Below are positions 4,550 through 19,234 of a stretch of 40,988 bases of DNA, piece by piece. The notes beneath the pieces were generated by a model. It was not told the DNA's origin. It searched no databases and saw only the letters and a list, made by a program, of their open reading frames with translations. The stretch covers positions 1 through 40,988 of IMG/VR virus record IMGVR_UViG_3300043419_000291; one strand, written 5' to 3'. The first letter of the stretch is position 1, and each line of letters begins with the position of its first letter. A program made the translations under genes and the position numbers. Source of the DNA: a virus.

Positions 4550-6571
4550 GTGGCTGGTCGCGACATAACAGAGGGTGATGGCAATGTCTGGGCTTTAGCA
4601 GGCGATGGTCTACCTATTGCACGTGGTACTGCAGATATTGGTATTGTTTCAACAGATGCTATCTGGCAGAACACTACAGTTTCATACGATACAGCCATTG
4701 GTGGTATGCCATTTATCTCTGCAATCTCAGATAAAGATGAGGCTGTTCGTCAGACAGCACCGTTCCGTAAGGAACAATTTGATAATGGACAAGAACCAGG
4801 AGAGCAATCGCTTACTGGTTGGTGGCTTCGCAGCCAGATGTCTTTTCATTCTGGTGCTGGTATTAATTTTTATGACCCATTAACCAATGATGAGGGTGGA
4901 CACTACCGATTTGCTGATAGCAAAGGTGTAAACGTCTGGACCAAGGGTCAAGTAACAATGCTTAAAGACTGTGTTCAAGGACATATTATTACTGGTGCTA
5001 TCCGCACTAACAATCGCCCATTCCAATCTCTTCGTTCTATTCAATGGACTACTAGCGGTACTACATTTAGTGGTGCTTTGTTATGGGACGAATATGATGT
5101 AGATAAGATTAAGGTTGATGACCCAGGCACACCAGTACATTTTATTGATTACAATGCAGGTACTGATGCACCTGTGTTTGCCATTTGTGATGATGGTACA
5201 AATGCATATTGGATTACAAATACAGCCACAAAGAAGACTGTATATAGAAAGCCACTAACTGGTACTGCTGCAGATAACTCAGACAGAGTAACAATGTTTG
5301 ATGAAGTAGGTTTAGTTACAAATGCAACAATGGAATACGTTAAAGACCGTATTATTATGTGTGCAAATAATAAAGTATATGAATTTGCTGGTAGTGCTAC
5401 CGCTATGCCAACTGCTGTATACACGCACCCAGTAACAACACACGTTTACTCAAGCGTTACTGCTTCTGGTCCAGCCATCTACGTGGCTGGCTATAACGGT
5501 ATTCAATCTACTATTCAGAAGTTTACCCTTAATACTTCTGGTGTTATGCCAACACTGACATCAGCAATTACTGCTGCTGAACTACCAGTTGGTGAGATTG
5601 TCCATAAGATTTACTATTACCTTGGCTACATAGTTATAGGTACAGATAAGGGCATCCGAGTAGGGCTTGTATCTGACCAAGATGGTTCTATTAACTATGG
5701 TCCATTGATTGTAGAAACAACTCAGCCTTGCTATGACTTTGCTGCGCGTGACCATTACGTATGGTGTGCAACTGGTGTCGATGGAGAGCCAGGTGTTATC
5801 CGTATTGATTTAAGCAATGAGATTGAAACACTTCGTTTTGCATATGCCAATGATATTTATGTATCTGATGTGGCTGGGTATAAAACTACAGCCTGCGCAT
5901 TTGCTGGCAATACAAATAGACTTATGTTTACTACCGCTAATAACGGCACAACAGATGGCTATGTGTATGTAGAAGCATTGTCGACATTACGCTCATCAGG
6001 ATATTTAACAACAGGCAACATTCGCTATGGAACACTAGAGCCTAAGAACTTTAAGCGTCTTATTGGACGCGGTGATTTTTCTTATGGGTCGTTAAGTTTA
6101 CTTAGCGTTGATATTGATAGCACAGAGTATGACCACATTACATATGACACAGCAGTTTCATCTGTTGAGGTTGGAACTAATCAGCCATCTGTTGCTAGAG
6201 AATACCTTGCATATAAGTTTTTATTCTTGCGTGATGCTACAACAACTAGCCGTGGTCCAGTATTCAAGGGCTATCAGGCTAAGGCTACTATTGCTACACC
6301 ACGTCAGCGACAGATTAGTTTTCCAGTTTACTGCTTTGATACAGAGACAGACCGCAATGGTGTAACTACTGGCTACAAGGGTAGAGCGCATGAGCGCATC
6401 CTTCAACTAGAAAACATTGAAGAGTCTGGTGACATTGTACTATGGCAAGATTTAAATACAGCAGAGATTCGTCAGGTACAGATTGAAGGTATATCTTTGC
6501 GACGTACTACTCCACCAGATAAGTTTAGTGGATACGGCGGAATCGTTAACATTGTAGTAAGGACGGTTTAA
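4550..6571 (+). CDS. Large tail structural protein
   Basis: A 673-residue protein starting at a GTG with an AAGGAG site ten bases upstream. The middle part (about residues 150-470) has repeated short beta-strand blocks of the kind NKVYEFAGS, AIYVAGYNGI and YYLGYIVIGTDKGIRV, which look like blades of a beta-propeller. The C-terminal part ends in REYLAYKFLFLRD and a final beta region. No enzymatic motif or signal peptide was seen. Its size and its place after the adhesin genes fit a minor tail, hub or nozzle protein; which one cannot be decided here. It overlaps the next gene by one base (TAATG). Confidence 0.7.
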   Translation: MAGRDITEGDGNVWALAGDGLPIARGTADIGIVSTDAIWQNTTVSYDTAIGGMPFISAISDKDEAVRQTAPFRKEQFDNGQEPGEQSLTGWWLRSQMSFHSGAGINFYDPLTNDEGGHYRFADSKGVNVWTKGQVTMLKDCVQGHIITGAIRTNNRPFQSLRSIQWTTSGTTFSGALLWDEYDVDKIKVDDPGTPVHFIDYNAGTDAPVFAICDDGTNAYWITNTATKKTVYRKPLTGTAADNSDRVTMFDEVGLVTNATMEYVKDRIIMCANNKVYEFAGSATAMPTAVYTHPVTTHVYSSVTASGPAIYVAGYNGIQSTIQKFTLNTSGVMPTLTSAITAAELPVGEIVHKIYYYLGYIVIGTDKGIRVGLVSDQDGSINYGPLIVETTQPCYDFAARDHYVWCATGVDGEPGVIRIDLSNEIETLRFAYANDIYVSDVAGYKTTACAFAGNTNRLMFTTANNGTTDGYVYVEALSTLRSSGYLTTGNIRYGTLEPKNFKRLIGRGDFSYGSLSLLSVDIDSTEYDHITYDTAVSSVEVGTNQPSVAREYLAYKFLFLRDATTTSRGPVFKGYQAKATIATPRQRQISFPVYCFDTETDRNGVTTGYKGRAHERILQLENIEESGDIVLWQDLNTAEIRQVQIEGISLRRTTPPDKFSGYGGIVNIVVRTV

Positions 6572-6795
6572 TGTCAGCAGCAGAATGGGCTGGCTTTGCC
6601 GTAGCCATAATGACTTTACTTGTTGGATTTACAACAGCAATTAGATGGTTAGTTAAGCACTACCTGTCAGAACTTAAACCAAATTCTGGCAGCAGCATGA
6701 GGGACGCAGTTAATATCAACACTGAACGATTGGACCGAGTTGAACAACGCGTTGACCAGATTTACCTTATCCTCTGCGAAAGCAAGAGCAAGTAA
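6571..6795 (+). CDS. Small membrane protein, holin-like
   Basis: A 74-residue protein with one clear transmembrane segment (about residues 8-28) followed by a basic patch (KHYLSELK) and a short coiled-coil-like helix (INTERLDRVEQRVDQIYLIL). This one-helix-plus-coiled-coil layout occurs in phage lysis cassettes. It is one of several small membrane proteins before and around the endolysin, so a role as holin, antiholin or lysis accessory is possible but unproven. The downstream gene begins inside this one, 56 bases before its stop. Confidence 0.65.
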   Translation: MSAAEWAGFAVAIMTLLVGFTTAIRWLVKHYLSELKPNSGSSMRDAVNINTERLDRVEQRVDQIYLILCESKSK

Positions 6796-7948
6796 ATACG
6801 CTGTATTTCTTATTGTATTAGGCACATCTTTCTTTTGGAATCCAGTAGCAGAAGCAGTATCAACTGGTCCAGCAACTATTACTTGCGCCAAACCAGATGG
6901 AACTCAGCAAACATTTAATGTTGCTTGGGATAACTCTAATCAATATTTTAATGGCAAGGGTGACATTGCTCGTTTGTTCTGTGAAGGTGGACACTCAGGT
7001 GGCTGGGCTATTTTTATAGGAACATCAGTACCTGATGGACCACTTCGTTATTACAACGGAGCAGTACCAGAACCTACTGTAAGTCCCACTCCAGAGCCAT
7101 CGCCCTCTCCACAGCAAACTGTTGCTCCTTCCGAGACTTCGACTGTAACTTCTGACTCTCCGACTGCAGTTGTTGAATCTCCAACTGTAGTTGTTGAACC
7201 TGTCGAGACTCAGACTTCGACATCTGAATCCAGCACACAAACCAACCAGTCAGAAACCCAAACAGTATTAGTAACTCCATCTGAACCTACTCCTTCTCAA
7301 CCTGAACCCAGCCTACCCAGTCCTCCACCAACGGTGGAGCCTGAACTAACTCCTGCTCCGAGTCAACCTGCTCCAGAGCCTGAGCCACAGCCCACCCCTC
7401 AGCCTCAGCCTGAGCCAGTACCTGAGCCACTACCTGAAGAGCCTCCTGCTCTTGCGGAAGAGCCGCCAGTTGCTGAAGAGCCACCGCCTGTCGAAGAACC
7501 GCCTGCACCTCCTGTTGCAGAAGAGCCGCCTCTACCTCCAGCCGAGGAAGAACAGCCTGCACCAGAGCCAGAGCCTTCTCCTGAGCCAGTCGAAGAGTCT
7601 GAGCCAGAACTTCAGCCTGAAATATCACTTGAACCTCCTAGTGTTAATAGTGTTGACCTAGAAAGTCTAGCACCTGATACCCTAGTTACCTTGGAGAATG
7701 GCGTAGTTATAACAGCAGAAGTCGCTATTGCTGTGGCTTTATTACAGGACCCAGCAGCATTGTTACAAGAATTATTTACAGACCCAGTTGCTGCACTCGC
7801 AGCATTCGGAAATGTAGGGGCGGACCTACCACCAGAAGTACGTAAGGATGCGGAAGAAGTAATCATATCTGCAATTATTGCTGGTGGTATAGCAACACAA
7901 GCAGCAGCAGGTGCTGCTGCTACCGCAGCGTATAGGAGAAAACCATAA
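6740..7948 (+). CDS. Secreted, membrane-anchored protein with a long Pro/Glu-rich spacer
   Basis: A 402-residue protein. The N terminus has a basic region and a hydrophobic stretch ending in VAEA (about residues 18-39), which looks like a signal peptide. Residues 45-108 form a small domain with two cysteines (C49, C81) that could be disulphide-linked. Residues 110-300 are a Pro/Glu/Ser/Thr-rich spacer with many PEP and EEPP units. The C terminus has hydrophobic helices and ends in a small-residue segment followed by RRK. This suggests an outer domain held away from the membrane by a wall-spanning spacer. No ATG fits: the start is probably TTG at 6740 (or TTG at 6752), inside the upstream gene. 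Function is unknown; superinfection exclusion, envelope disruption or a virion role are all possible. Confidence 0.7.
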   Translation: MNNALTRFTLSSAKARASKYAVFLIVLGTSFFWNPVAEAVSTGPATITCAKPDGTQQTFNVAWDNSNQYFNGKGDIARLFCEGGHSGGWAIFIGTSVPDGPLRYYNGAVPEPTVSPTPEPSPSPQQTVAPSETSTVTSDSPTAVVESPTVVVEPVETQTSTSESSTQTNQSETQTVLVTPSEPTPSQPEPSLPSPPPTVEPELTPAPSQPAPEPEPQPTPQPQPEPVPEPLPEEPPALAEEPPVAEEPPPVEEPPAPPVAEEPPLPPAEEEQPAPEPEPSPEPVEESEPELQPEISLEPPSVNSVDLESLAPDTLVTLENGVVITAEVAIAVALLQDPAALLQELFTDPVAALAAFGNVGADLPPEVRKDAEEVIISAIIAGGIATQAAAGAAATAAYRRKP

Positions 7949-8121
7949 TGAAAAAACTACTATCTGATATTGCTAATCAACTATGGACACTCCTTGGAAT
8001 GTTTGTTGCTTGGGTAGTCCTTGAAGGTTCTGCCAAGACAGTGGTTGGTTATGCAATCGTAATCTGTCTTGTCATATGGACAGTCACACTTAACCTACGC
8101 AACTTAAAGGAAGACGAGTAA
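7948..8121 (+). CDS. Small two-helix membrane protein
   Basis: A 57-residue protein starting at an ATG that overlaps the previous stop (TAATG), with AGGAG upstream. Two hydrophobic helices are visible: LWTLLGMFVAWVVLEG (about 12-28) and TVVGYAIVICLVIWTVTL (about 31-50). The tail is charged (KEDE). Its place just before the endolysin makes it a holin or antiholin candidate. Confidence 0.7.
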   Translation: MKKLLSDIANQLWTLLGMFVAWVVLEGSAKTVVGYAIVICLVIWTVTLNLRNLKEDE

Positions 8122-8234
8122 TGAATCCAACAGCAACGTTGGGTCTAATGGTTGCAACAACTTTACTTGCACTTGCAGCAGTTGCTTGGGTTATAGCAGA
8201 AGTAATACTTTTCTTTACAAAGGATGATAAATAA
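8121..8234 (+). CDS. Very small single-helix membrane protein
   Basis: A 37-residue reading frame starting and ending in TAATG overlaps with its neighbours. It consists almost entirely of one hydrophobic helix (MVATTLLALAAVAWVIAEVI) and ends in KDDK. The tight coupling on both sides supports it as a real gene. Possible lysis regulator or holin subunit; no family recognised. Confidence 0.6.
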   Translation: MNPTATLGLMVATTLLALAAVAWVIAEVILFFTKDDK

Positions 8235-8476
8235 TGGATACATTTAAGAATGTAATGATGAGAATCTTTGCTGTAATTGCAGCGGAATCACTCGGAGTTA
8301 TCGGTGCTGGCTCACTTGTTGGCATTGAAGTATGGCAGGCAGCAACACTCGCAGGTGCGCTAGGCGCAGCAAGAGTGCTTGAAGCGTTAGCACGCTTCTA
8401 TCTAGCAGATGGAAGCCTGACATCAGAAGAAATAAACGCAGCCTTTGCTAAGGTAGATAAGAAAGCGAGCGAATAA
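8234..8476 (+). CDS. Putative holin / membrane protein
   Basis: An 80-residue protein. Residues about 10-55 are hydrophobic and glycine/alanine-rich (IAAESLGVIGAGSLVGIEVW, then QAATLAGALGAARVLEALAR), compatible with one or two membrane helices. They are followed by an acidic soluble tail with SLTSEEINAAF. This layout resembles small holin-like membrane proteins of actinophages. It ends one base before the endolysin gene, the usual place for a holin. Holin function is inferred from context. Confidence 0.65.
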   Translation: MDTFKNVMMRIFAVIAAESLGVIGAGSLVGIEVWQAATLAGALGAARVLEALARFYLADGSLTSEEINAAFAKVDKKASE

Positions 8477-8477
8477 T

Positions 8478-8987
8478 ATGGGTCAACGTGCAGATTTTAT
8501 TGCAGTTGCAAAGGGAGAACTCGATGTTATCGAGGGACCAAAAGATAATGAGACAAAATATGGAGCATTCACTAGAGCAAACTTCTTGCCTTGGTGTGGC
8601 TCATTCGTGAATTGGTGTGCAAATGAAGTGGGACTTAAGATTCCTAATGTGGTCAGCACAGTGGCGGGCGCTACTGCGTTCATTAAGAAGAAGCAGTGGG
8701 AGAAAGTAAGTGAAGCGACTCCGCTACCTGGCGATATCGTTTTCTTTGATTTTCCCAATGATGGCGTTGACCGCATTAGTCATGTTGGAATCGTGGTTAA
8801 AGACAACGGAGACGGAACTGTAACTTGCATTGAGGGCAACACATCGCCCGACAAGAAGGGCGACCAGCGAAATGGTGGTCAGGTATGCAAGAAGATACGT
8901 GCATATAAAGTTAAGAATGGTTCAAAGATTAAACGTTCGTTGCCAGTTTATATCGTAGGTTTTGGCAAGCCTGTATTCAAGTCATAA
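8478..8987 (+). CDS. CHAP-domain endolysin
   Basis: A 169-residue cell-wall hydrolase of the CHAP (cysteine/histidine amidohydrolase-peptidase) family, which cuts peptide bonds in peptidoglycan. The catalytic cysteine is seen in PWCGSFVNWC (C40), the histidine in ISHVGIVV (H102) and the polar partner in CIEGNTS (about 118-123). The PGDIVFF motif before the histidine is also typical. The protein is a single catalytic domain with no clear wall-binding domain and no signal peptide, so it needs a holin to reach the wall. Several membrane-protein genes lie directly before it and one directly after it. Confidence 0.9.
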   Translation: MGQRADFIAVAKGELDVIEGPKDNETKYGAFTRANFLPWCGSFVNWCANEVGLKIPNVVSTVAGATAFIKKKQWEKVSEATPLPGDIVFFDFPNDGVDRISHVGIVVKDNGDGTVTCIEGNTSPDKKGDQRNGGQVCKKIRAYKVKNGSKIKRSLPVYIVGFGKPVFKS

Positions 8988-8997
8988 GGAGAACAAA

Positions 8998-9189
8998 ATG
9001 TTCGACAAAGAAAAACTAAAGCAAATCGGATTATCATATCTACGTGCTGCTGCTGCATCTATAGTTGCTCTATACACTGCGGGTCAGCATGACCCGAAGG
9101 TACTGGCTACTGCATTTGCTACTGGTCTAATCGGTCCTATCATGAAGGCGCTTGATAAGTCAGCACCTGAATTTGGACGCACTAAGTAA
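8998..9189 (+). CDS. Small holin-like protein
   Basis: A 63-residue protein, start chosen at 8998 because AAGGAG lies seven bases upstream. A hydrophobic region (LSYLRAAAASIVALYTAG, about 9-26) is followed by a second moderately hydrophobic helix (VLATAFATGLIGPIMKAL) and an ending DKSAPEFGRTK. This resembles small holins of actinophages and other environmental phages that sit beside the endolysin. It is the last gene of the plus-strand unit, directly before a strong terminator. Confidence 0.7.
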   Translation: MFDKEKLKQIGLSYLRAAAASIVALYTAGQHDPKVLATAFATGLIGPIMKALDKSAPEFGRTK

Positions 9190-9257: not shown

Positions 9258-9539
9258 TTATTCGTAGAGTCCTTCAAAGACTAGACCCTTGGCTATAATG
9301 TTGCGCTTCTTGCGCATAGCACGCCTTGTTTTTTCTGTTGTTCCACCCCAATAACCACTTACGTTATTGTATAAAGAATAATTTAGGCATTCAATTTTAA
9401 CTGGACATGCAGCACAGATGCGTTTGAGTGTTGATTCATTCTCATATCTTTTGCCACCATCAGGAACAAAGAACTCGTTTGTATCTATACCTCGGCAGTT
9501 GCTTTGGTCTGTCCACATTAACTCATCCGATAGATTCAT
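9258..9539 (-). CDS. WhiB-family transcriptional regulator
   Basis: A 93-residue WhiB-like protein. The four iron-sulphur-cluster cysteines are present (C15, then C42, C45 and C51 in CAACPVKIEC), with the family's GYWGG turn (62-66) and a basic C-terminal DNA-contact segment (RRAMRKKR). WhiB proteins occur only in actinobacteria and their phages, carry a [4Fe-4S] cluster, and many act by binding region 4 of the primary sigma factor. A phage WhiB (TM4) is known to interfere with host WhiB2. The start has AGGAGG six bases upstream and overlaps the previous stop. It is the last gene of the minus-strand unit, close to a sigma-like gene. Confidence 0.93.
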   Translation of the reverse strand: MNLSDELMWTDQSNCRGIDTNEFFVPDGGKRYENESTLKRICAACPVKIECLNYSLYNNVSGYWGGTTEKTRRAMRKKRNIIAKGLVFEGLYE

Positions 9540-18655: not shown

Positions 18656-18813
18656 ATTCTCTCTCCTTCTGTTAGTGTTGTGTATACCCATGACCACGAC
18701 ATGTTGTTGCGGTTACGGGGTAGTGCATCTGCTATCGTTCTTAATGCCTCTTCATCATTCGATGCTTCGACATTGAACACTATACATACGCTATAGATGT
18801 TAGTACCATCCAT
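18652..18813 (-). CDS. Small hypothetical protein
   Basis: A 53-residue protein; the start at 18813 has GGAGG five bases upstream, while the longer open frame lies over the transglycosylase gene and is unlikely to be coding. The N terminus NIYSVCIVFNVEASNDEEAL looks like one strand and one helix of a small alpha/beta protein, ending WSWVYTTLTEGERI. It overlaps the transglycosylase gene by 14 bases and the DUF4192-like gene by ATGA. No family recognised. Confidence 0.6.
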   Translation of the reverse strand: MDGTNIYSVCIVFNVEASNDEEALRTIADALPRNRNNMSWSWVYTTLTEGERI

Positions 18814-19234
18814 TTTTCCTCCAATGTGACCATGCAATTGATGGCTTATCGTAACGATGAACAATATACGACAGCCCCTTCTCAATCTGGAGAGGGGCTG
18901 GAGTTCCAGGTTTTGTATTAAGAACTTGCGCAATACCATAAGCACTGGACTCAGGGTTATCTGCATGCATATTCCATGCCGACTCTTTACCCCATAGTTT
19001 ATTTAGTGAGCGCCATTCTGCTCTAGTCCATGTCGGATGATGTACCTTCATGTATGCAAGAGCGTATGCTTTAGCGCGTTGCTTGCTCCAGATAGTAGGA
19101 CCAAACTCTACACATTTCGGGTCATAGTTATCTTGGTTTGCTAGTTGTTTAATAGGTATACCTATAAGACTAGCCAGCGTTAGGATTGCTATGCCTATGC
19201 TTGCAAAGTATTTCTTGACGATACTAGTCAGCAT
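18800..19234 (-). CDS. Lytic transglycosylase-like protein with membrane anchor
   Basis: A 144-residue protein. Residues 11-29 are a hydrophobic signal or anchor segment (SIGIAILTLASLIGIPI). From about residue 72 the sequence matches actinobacterial lytic transglycosylases of the lysozyme-like fold: LNKLWGKESAWNMHADNP with probable catalytic E84, then SSAYGIAQVL, LSYIVHRYDKPSIAWSH and the terminal NGWY. It would cleave the glycan strands of peptidoglycan outside the membrane. It is unusual that it lies in the early minus-strand unit and not with the endolysin at 8478. The ATG overlaps the upstream small gene by 11 bases. Confidence 0.82.
   Translation of the reverse strand: MLTSIVKKYFASIGIAILTLASLIGIPIKQLANQDNYDPKCVEFGPTIWSKQRAKAYALAYMKVHHPTWTRAEWRSLNKLWGKESAWNMHADNPESSAYGIAQVLNTKPGTPAPLQIEKGLSYIVHRYDKPSIAWSHWRKNGWY

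What the first reader, a model, noticed from the sequence alone, without database searches (positions are those of the whole stretch)
6740..7948. Phage-encoded secreted protein with wall-spanning Pro/Glu spacer before the lysis genes
The product has a signal-like N terminus, a two-cysteine outer domain, about 190 residues of Pro/Glu/Ser/Thr-rich spacer and a C-terminal hydrophobic region ending in RRK. This is the plan of a cell-surface protein of actinobacteria, not of a known virion or lysis protein. It begins at TTG within the preceding gene, an unusual start that suggests low or coupled expression. It could block superinfection, span the wall during lysis, or alter the host surface.
Basis: partly seen in the sequence, partly recalled or inferred. 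Interest (0 to 1): 0.6.

Follow-up and report, generated by a model that had tools for sequence, protein, structure and literature searches.

The report
Phage-made stalked protein for host surface
Viruses of freshwater actinobacteria appear to make an exported, stalk-like protein whose exchangeable sugar-binding-type head would stick out of the infected cell, always paired with a tiny membrane protein; what it does for the virus is unknown but it is a widespread, undescribed family.

Summary
ORF 6740-7948 encodes a protein with signal peptide, two-cysteine outer domain, ~190-residue Pro/Glu/Ser/Thr spacer, and a conserved C-terminal region ending in a hydrophobic stretch plus YRRKP. The outer domain is a cassette: mostly a two-Cys domain with no PDB match, elsewhere PA14, SUEL lectin, fn3 or unassigned domains. 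In near-identical phages it alone is replaced (46% identity against 96-100% for the flanks). The stalk gene is followed by an undescribed 57-aa two-helix membrane protein (7948-8121) in 108 of 109 members; 76 of 76 loci found through the small protein carry the stalk. The pair is an accessory of the lysis region: 29 of 66 loci sharing the upstream tail gene have it. Best reading: late, membrane-anchored surface lectin that occupies host glycans so that progeny are not re-adsorbed; a LysZ-like glycan-binding lysis aid is nearly as likely. Function is inferred, not shown.

The parts
6740..7948 (+). stalk protein gene (402 aa from TTG 6740; 398 aa from the better conserved TTG 6752)
6752..6754 (+). 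preferred start codon TTG, inside the upstream gene
   Evidence: present in 70 of 76 relatives with the motif; the other 6 have a start codon within 4 codons
6740..6856 (+). signal peptide, predicted cleavage after AEA
   Evidence: sequence; family statistics
6857..7072 (+). outer domain with two invariant cysteines; exchangeable cassette
   Evidence: alignment A3, model pLDDT 92.6, exchange
7073..7642 (+). Ser/Thr-rich then Pro/Glu-rich spacer (about 190 residues)
   Evidence: sequence
7643..7858 (+). conserved membrane-proximal helical region
   Evidence: alignment A4, low-confidence model
7859..7945 (+). hydrophobic C-terminal helix plus YRRKP, predicted anchor with basic cytoplasmic end
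7948..8121 (+). 57-aa two-helix membrane protein, obligate partner gene, stop/start overlap of 1 nt
6571..6795 (+). 74-aa membrane plus coiled-coil-like gene upstream (phrog_9869), left border of the exchangeable lysis cassette
8234..8476 (+). 80-aa membrane-like protein, usually in the same cassette (near 63 of 68 stalk genes)
8478..8987 (+). CHAP endolysin
   Evidence: Pfam PF05257 51.1 bits
8998..9189 (+). holin-like 63-aa protein, right border of the cassette
   Evidence: the word holin rests on position and on the annotation of a Streptomyces phage gene at the same place

Best explanation
The gene makes a Sec-exported, type I membrane protein: the signal peptide is removed, the C-terminal helix with RRKP stays in the cell membrane together with the 57-aa two-helix partner, the Pro/Glu-rich spacer crosses the cell wall, and the outer domain is shown at the surface, where it binds host surface glycans. 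Being in the late tail-lysis gene run, it would be made at the end of infection. I think its most likely use is to occupy receptor glycans of the dying cell and its debris, so that released progeny and related phages do not adsorb there (late superinfection exclusion / progeny protection). Shown by computation: architecture, family, exchange of the outer domain, obligate partner. Inferred by analogy of position: glycan binding (PA14 and SUEL lectin domains sit at the same place in relatives). Inferred only: membrane topology, timing, and the benefit to the phage.
For: Signal peptide and C-terminal anchor features in nearly all of 109 members. Two cysteines in the mature part in 84 of 109, as expected outside the cytoplasm. 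Relatives carry PA14 (9 of 35 scanned, all over Pfam's cut-off), SUEL lectin (over cut-off in L088; weaker in L057, and in L144, which also has the two-Cys domain) and fn3 between signal peptide and stalk. Outer domain diverges and is swapped most: mean identity 0.56 against 0.62-0.82 for six other parts in 903 pairs of 43 loci; L002 against the window: tail 98%, 74-aa gene 96%, outer 46%, C-term 97%, partner 100%, CHAP 98%. Fourfold-degenerate sites also differ more in the outer part (L002: 8 of 28 against 3 of 59 in the C-term), so it was replaced, not only selected. C-term and partner covary (partial r 0.54). Accessory, not core: 37 of 66 loci with the same tail gene lack it. No integrase or resolvase family found in this window, so protection of a lytic brood fits better than lysogenic conversion.
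Against: No binding, surface exposure or exclusion has been measured. The window's own outer domain has no Pfam match and no PDB fold match, so glycan binding is by analogy of position. Outer-domain identity does not follow the upstream tail gene (r = -0.01, partial r -0.08), and no outer domain was seen in a tail protein of these phages (11 non-stalk ORF hits; the five printed are stalk-like ORFs without the C-terminal match, four of them cut at or near a contig end), so co-evolution with a receptor-binding protein is not shown; the true receptor-binding gene is not known, however. An exclusion factor needs no dedicated two-helix partner, and 63 of 68 stalk genes lie within 4 kb of an endolysin-like gene, which suits a lysis role as well.
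Confidence: 0.38

Rival explanations
1. Lysis aid: the stalk with its 57-aa partner works like LysZ of Corynebacterium phages or like a spanin, linking the membrane to an outer glycan layer and tearing it once the endolysin has cut the peptidoglycan.
For: Sits in the lysis region: endolysin-like gene within 4 kb in 63 of 68 loci with room on both sides; travels with p57, p80 and CHAP endolysin as one cassette between the 74-aa gene and the holin-like gene (28 of the 29 stalk-bearing tail loci also show p80); glycan-binding head types; LysZ is reported to act through lipid-anchored glycans (PMC13056207, passages).
Against: Relatives with the same tail gene manage without it (37 of 66 loci; cultured phages E7 and F5 lack it on either strand of the whole record). 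Endolysin type next to it varies (CHAP, M23, M15-like) and 5 of 68 have none within 4 kb. Predicted topology (N-out, C-in) is opposite to LysZ's. Spacer length runs from 39 to 369 residues, loose for a force-bearing bridge.
Confidence: 0.3
2. Trans-adhesin: the head binds glycans of other cells, making the infected cell sticky so that progeny burst next to fresh hosts.
For: Long flexible stalk with exchangeable lectin-type head.
Against: Nothing distinguishes binding in trans from binding in cis; planktonic hosts gain little time before lysis.
Confidence: 0.1
3. Change of the cell surface against grazers or other agents (hiding the infected cell from protists) rather than against phages.
For: Same architecture and diverse heads; nothing specific.
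Against: No specific evidence.
Confidence: 0.06
4. Virion protein (tail or head fibre).
For: Gene lies directly after tail genes; PA14, fn3 and lectin domains also occur in tail fibres (recalled).
Against: Signal peptide and C-terminal membrane anchor kept in the family; no PHROG match to any structural family.
Confidence: 0.06

Closest known systems
LysZ of Corynebacterium phages (CL31, Cog)
   Same: actinophage, lysis region, one membrane helix, proposed contact with extracellular glycans
   Different: 177 aa and N-in/C-out, against ~400 aa with predicted N-out/C-in, a long Pro/Glu spacer, a swappable head and an obligate partner here (PMC13056207, passages seen); sequences not compared
Exported superinfection-exclusion proteins of phages (T5 Llp, TP-J34 Ltp, phi80 Cor type; recalled)
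   Same: phage-made, exported, acts at the host surface against adsorption or entry (proposed here)
   Different: those are small lipoproteins or outer-membrane proteins (recalled); the family here has no lipobox (1 of 109), a stalk and a modular head
LPXTG-type and PEP-CTERM-type surface proteins of bacteria (recalled)
   Same: signal peptide, Pro-rich stalk, C-terminal hydrophobic helix with basic end
   Different: no LPXTG motif in the window protein or in the invariant columns of the C-terminal alignment; phage-borne; followed by a 57-aa gene, not a sortase
A0A6J5NAZ9, uncultured Caudovirales phage, uncharacterized, 256 aa
   Same: contains the same outer-domain fold (Foldseek E 1.5e-7, TMq 0.86)
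   Different: record not examined further; no function named

Membership tests
Phage-borne stalk-protein family (defined here) | conserved C-terminal region ending in hydrophobic helix + RR | tested here: met
   alignments A1 and A4; 55-97% identity to four relatives; RR near the end in 108 of 109
Phage-borne stalk-protein family (defined here) | 57-aa two-helix gene directly downstream | tested here: met
   window 7948-8121; 108 of 109 members; 76 of 76 in the reciprocal search
LysZ | N-in/C-out single membrane helix, about 177 aa | tested here: inconclusive
   length differs (402 aa); signal peptide plus C-terminal helix predict N-out/C-in, but topology is predicted from hydrophobicity and charge only
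LysZ | needed for efficient lysis of a glycan-bearing actinobacterium | not testable with these tools
   needs a deletion phage
LysZ | sequence similarity to LysZ | not tested
   LysZ sequence not fetched
Spanins | outer-membrane lipoprotein and/or N-terminal signal-anchor i-spanin with periplasmic coiled coil (recalled definition) | tested here: not met
   lipobox after the h-region in 1 of 109 members; cleavable-type signal peptide and C-terminal anchor
Superinfection-exclusion proteins | blocks adsorption or entry of a second phage | not testable with these tools
   needs expression and adsorption assays
LPXTG surface proteins | LPXTG motif before the C-terminal helix | tested here: not met
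   no such motif in the window protein nor in the invariant columns of A4
Lectins (PA14, SUEL) | profile match of the outer domain | tested here: not met
   window protein: no Pfam match at E 0.1; relatives do match

The most novel reading that the evidence does not exclude
A new kind of phage device: a two-gene membrane module that turns the infected bacterium into a display for interchangeable lectin heads, with the anchor and partner co-evolving while heads are shuffled between phages like tail-fibre tips, used to control which virions or cells stick to the dying host.
Probability: 0.35. Interest if true: 0.85.

Novelty: new variant of a known kind. Interest (0 to 1): 0.62.

Why it matters
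Actinobacteria of the acI / Ca. Nanopelagicales type are among the most abundant freshwater bacteria, and their phages are little known. If these phages dress their host with swappable surface lectins, this names a widespread class of viral gene (at least 500 confirmed stretches in IMG/VR) with a testable role at the cell surface, and it gives an undescribed, obligately paired 57-aa membrane protein a context. It would also make directly testable how lytic phages avoid losing progeny to the debris of their own hosts in dilute water.

Tried and rejected
Antisense gene: the minus-strand ORF 7074-7280 reads as a membrane helix plus coiled coil and recurs in relatives. Antisense frame 2 is more open than codon-permuted controls in 33 of 109 members at P<0.05, but the excess sits in the linker (junction stops observed/expected 0.53 in the linker, 0.99 in the C-terminal part, 0.77-1.12 in six other genes) and fourfold-degenerate sites under the ORF diverge as elsewhere (195 of 473 against 198 of 456, 350 of 789 and 350 of 839). 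Rejected as a by-product of composition.

Frameshift fusion with the upstream gene: rejected, because members of the L001 type start at a GTG after the upstream stop and start codons in the overlap are retained or compensated.

Host origin: two scans of genome contigs (A1: 401 stretches, 0 relatives; A3: 67 stretches, 0 relatives). These use short degenerate patterns and can miss distant relatives; no profile search of Nanopelagicales genomes was possible because no host handle was available.

Covariation of outer domain with the upstream tail gene: none. Outer domains inside tail proteins: none among the printed hits (which printed 5 of 11); the blast clustering in that call merged most outer domains into one group of 98 through chained hits and was not used.

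Fold of the outer domain: Foldseek PDB best E 0.81, VIA-align best Z 3.3; nothing usable. PDB sequence searches gave only chance-level hits. C-terminal model too weak (pLDDT 68) for a fold search.

Annotated phage records: tblastn of the window protein, of three other family proteins or parts, and of two partner proteins against 50,697 records found nothing.

Literature: eight searches showed no description of this family; open-access PubMed Central papers only, no preprints. Papers opened: PMC6802176, PMC10914622 and PMC13056207 (passages), PMC10202952 (part 1 of 2).

Full report
What is there. No Pfam or PHROG family matches it. The record is an IMG/VR virus of 40,988 bases with a WhiB gene at 9258-9539 (62.8 bits, cut-off 23.6), no tRNA and no match to the phage-integrase or resolvase families. 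The tail gene before it (4550-6571) is 66% identical to that of OX376640/OX376641 and 33-36% to Streptomyces phages. Those two records bear the names of phages E7 and F5, the first isolates on Ca. Nanopelagicales (PMC10202952, part 1 of 2 of the text read). The host of the window is therefore inferred to be an actinobacterium of that kind.

A large family. Several loci are from the same contigs, so the locus counts (57-aa gene downstream in 140 of 140) hold copies. After removal of copies with the same last 150 residues, 109 members with both ends inside a locus remain, the window's own included. Spacer length is 39-369 residues, median 209, with 28.7% Pro and 16.5% Glu. Two scans of one genome for each of 84,980 prokaryote species found no relative, and 50,697 annotated phage records gave none by tblastn.

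Start and export. In 70 of 76 members with the motif a TTG equivalent to window 6752 is kept; 4 of the 6 exceptions keep the TTG equivalent to 6740 and 2 have a GTG one codon upstream (33 of 109 members lack the motif and were not scored). Start codons lie 4-24 codons before the hydrophobic core in 103 of 109; 59% of control windows in the C-terminal part also hold one, so that count alone is weak. Overlap with the upstream 74-aa gene (77 of 85) points to coupled translation. Net positive n-region in 107, A-x-A site in 95, lipobox in 1 of 109. These are rule-based tests; no dedicated signal-peptide predictor was available.

The head is a cassette. By profile, 74 of 109 members carry the two-Cys domain. 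Its model is confident (pLDDT 92.6) but matches nothing in the PDB and one uncharacterized phage protein in BFVD. Among 35 members scanned with Pfam, chosen mainly because their heads differ, 9 have PA14, 2 SUEL lectin and 2 fn3; separately, L088 has PA14, fn3 and SUEL all over the cut-offs, and L144 has the two-Cys domain with a sub-threshold SUEL match. In 43 loci with all neighbours readable (903 pairs; 31 of 74 two-Cys loci lacked a readable neighbour and were dropped) the outer domain is the least conserved part (mean 0.56; tail 0.62, holin-like 0.64, C-term 0.67, 74-aa gene 0.70, 57-aa gene 0.74, CHAP 0.82) and its identity is nearly independent of tail (r -0.01) and of its own C-terminus (0.11). 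L002 and the window differ in the outer domain (46%) while everything around is 96-100%. This is exchange by recombination.

The partner. An undescribed 57-aa protein with two hydrophobic helices and an invariant G-x-A-K in between follows 108 of 109 stalk genes, mostly with 1- or 4-nt overlap (the rule required a GAK, SAK or DG string, so it leans towards known members). Starting from the small protein, 76 of 76 loci with enough upstream sequence have the stalk directly before it (4 of 80 too short). Its divergence follows that of the stalk C-terminus (partial r 0.54; the two are neighbours, so linkage contributes). It has no Pfam or PHROG match. I take the C-terminal helix and this protein to form one membrane unit; that is inference.

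Genome setting. Of 83 loci examined with the tail gene (80 plus E7, F5 and the window), 17 were too short; 29 carry the stalk and 37 do not. With it, 27 of 29 show the order 74-aa gene, stalk, 57-aa, 80-aa, CHAP endolysin, holin-like. Without it the space between the 74-aa and the holin-like gene holds, where an ORF was called, mostly an endolysin of the E7 type (M15-like by my reading of the sequence, not by a profile), once a CHAP-like protein (L286); in several loci no clear ORF was called. So it is an accessory that moves with one type of lysis cassette. In other phages the pair stands beside M23 lysins, before or after them, and in 5 of 68 loci no endolysin-like gene was found within 4 kb; in L087 it lies beside genes that look like head genes by eye.

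How it may work. The parts fit a surface display: exported head, wall-crossing stalk, membrane anchor. Heads of known type in the family are glycan binders (PA14 and SUEL, established knowledge of those families), and the heads are shuffled, as expected for contact with variable surface glycans. Position in the late gene run suggests production shortly before lysis. Occupying the receptors of the dying cell would spare progeny; a LysZ-like role in breaking a glycan layer fits the place beside the lysis genes nearly as well. The accessory distribution and the variable spacer favour the first, the constant partner and lysis linkage the second. I give 0.38 and 0.30. The surface-display anatomy itself I hold at about 0.85.

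What is new. The searches listed under Tried and rejected found no description of the family. Kinds of phage proteins that act at the host surface are known, so I rate it a new variant; the combination of swappable lectin-type heads, long stalk and obligate two-helix partner could deserve a class of its own if function were shown.

Noticed in passing
window 7074-7280 (-): Antisense ORF reading as membrane helix plus coiled coil, recurring in relatives; fourfold-site divergence shows no extra constraint, so a by-product of linker composition.
   Followed up: yes
window 9258-9539 (-): WhiB-family gene (PF02467), marker of actinophages.
   Followed up: partly
window 6571-9189 and loci: Whole lysis cassette between the 74-aa gene and the holin-like gene is exchanged as a block: stalk + 57-aa + 80-aa + CHAP against a different endolysin.
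   Followed up: partly
L088, L072, L075, L103 C-terminal ends: In these members the hydrophobic segment is followed by a Gly/Ser-rich stretch and the basic RR motif still closes the protein, as if the terminal motif itself were recognised.
   Followed up: no
L003 6210-6250: A short tandem duplication breaks the stalk frame in IMGVR_UViG_3300008262_000475; assembly error or true mutation not decided.
   Followed up: no
window 8234-8476: 80-aa membrane-like protein matches PHROG 26427, labelled nuclease; sequence and position suggest a membrane lysis protein, so the label is doubtful.
   Followed up: no
window 18800-19234 (-): 144-aa ORF with an N-terminal hydrophobic segment and a sequence that reminds me of lysozyme-like transglycosylases (recalled); no Pfam match.
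   Followed up: no
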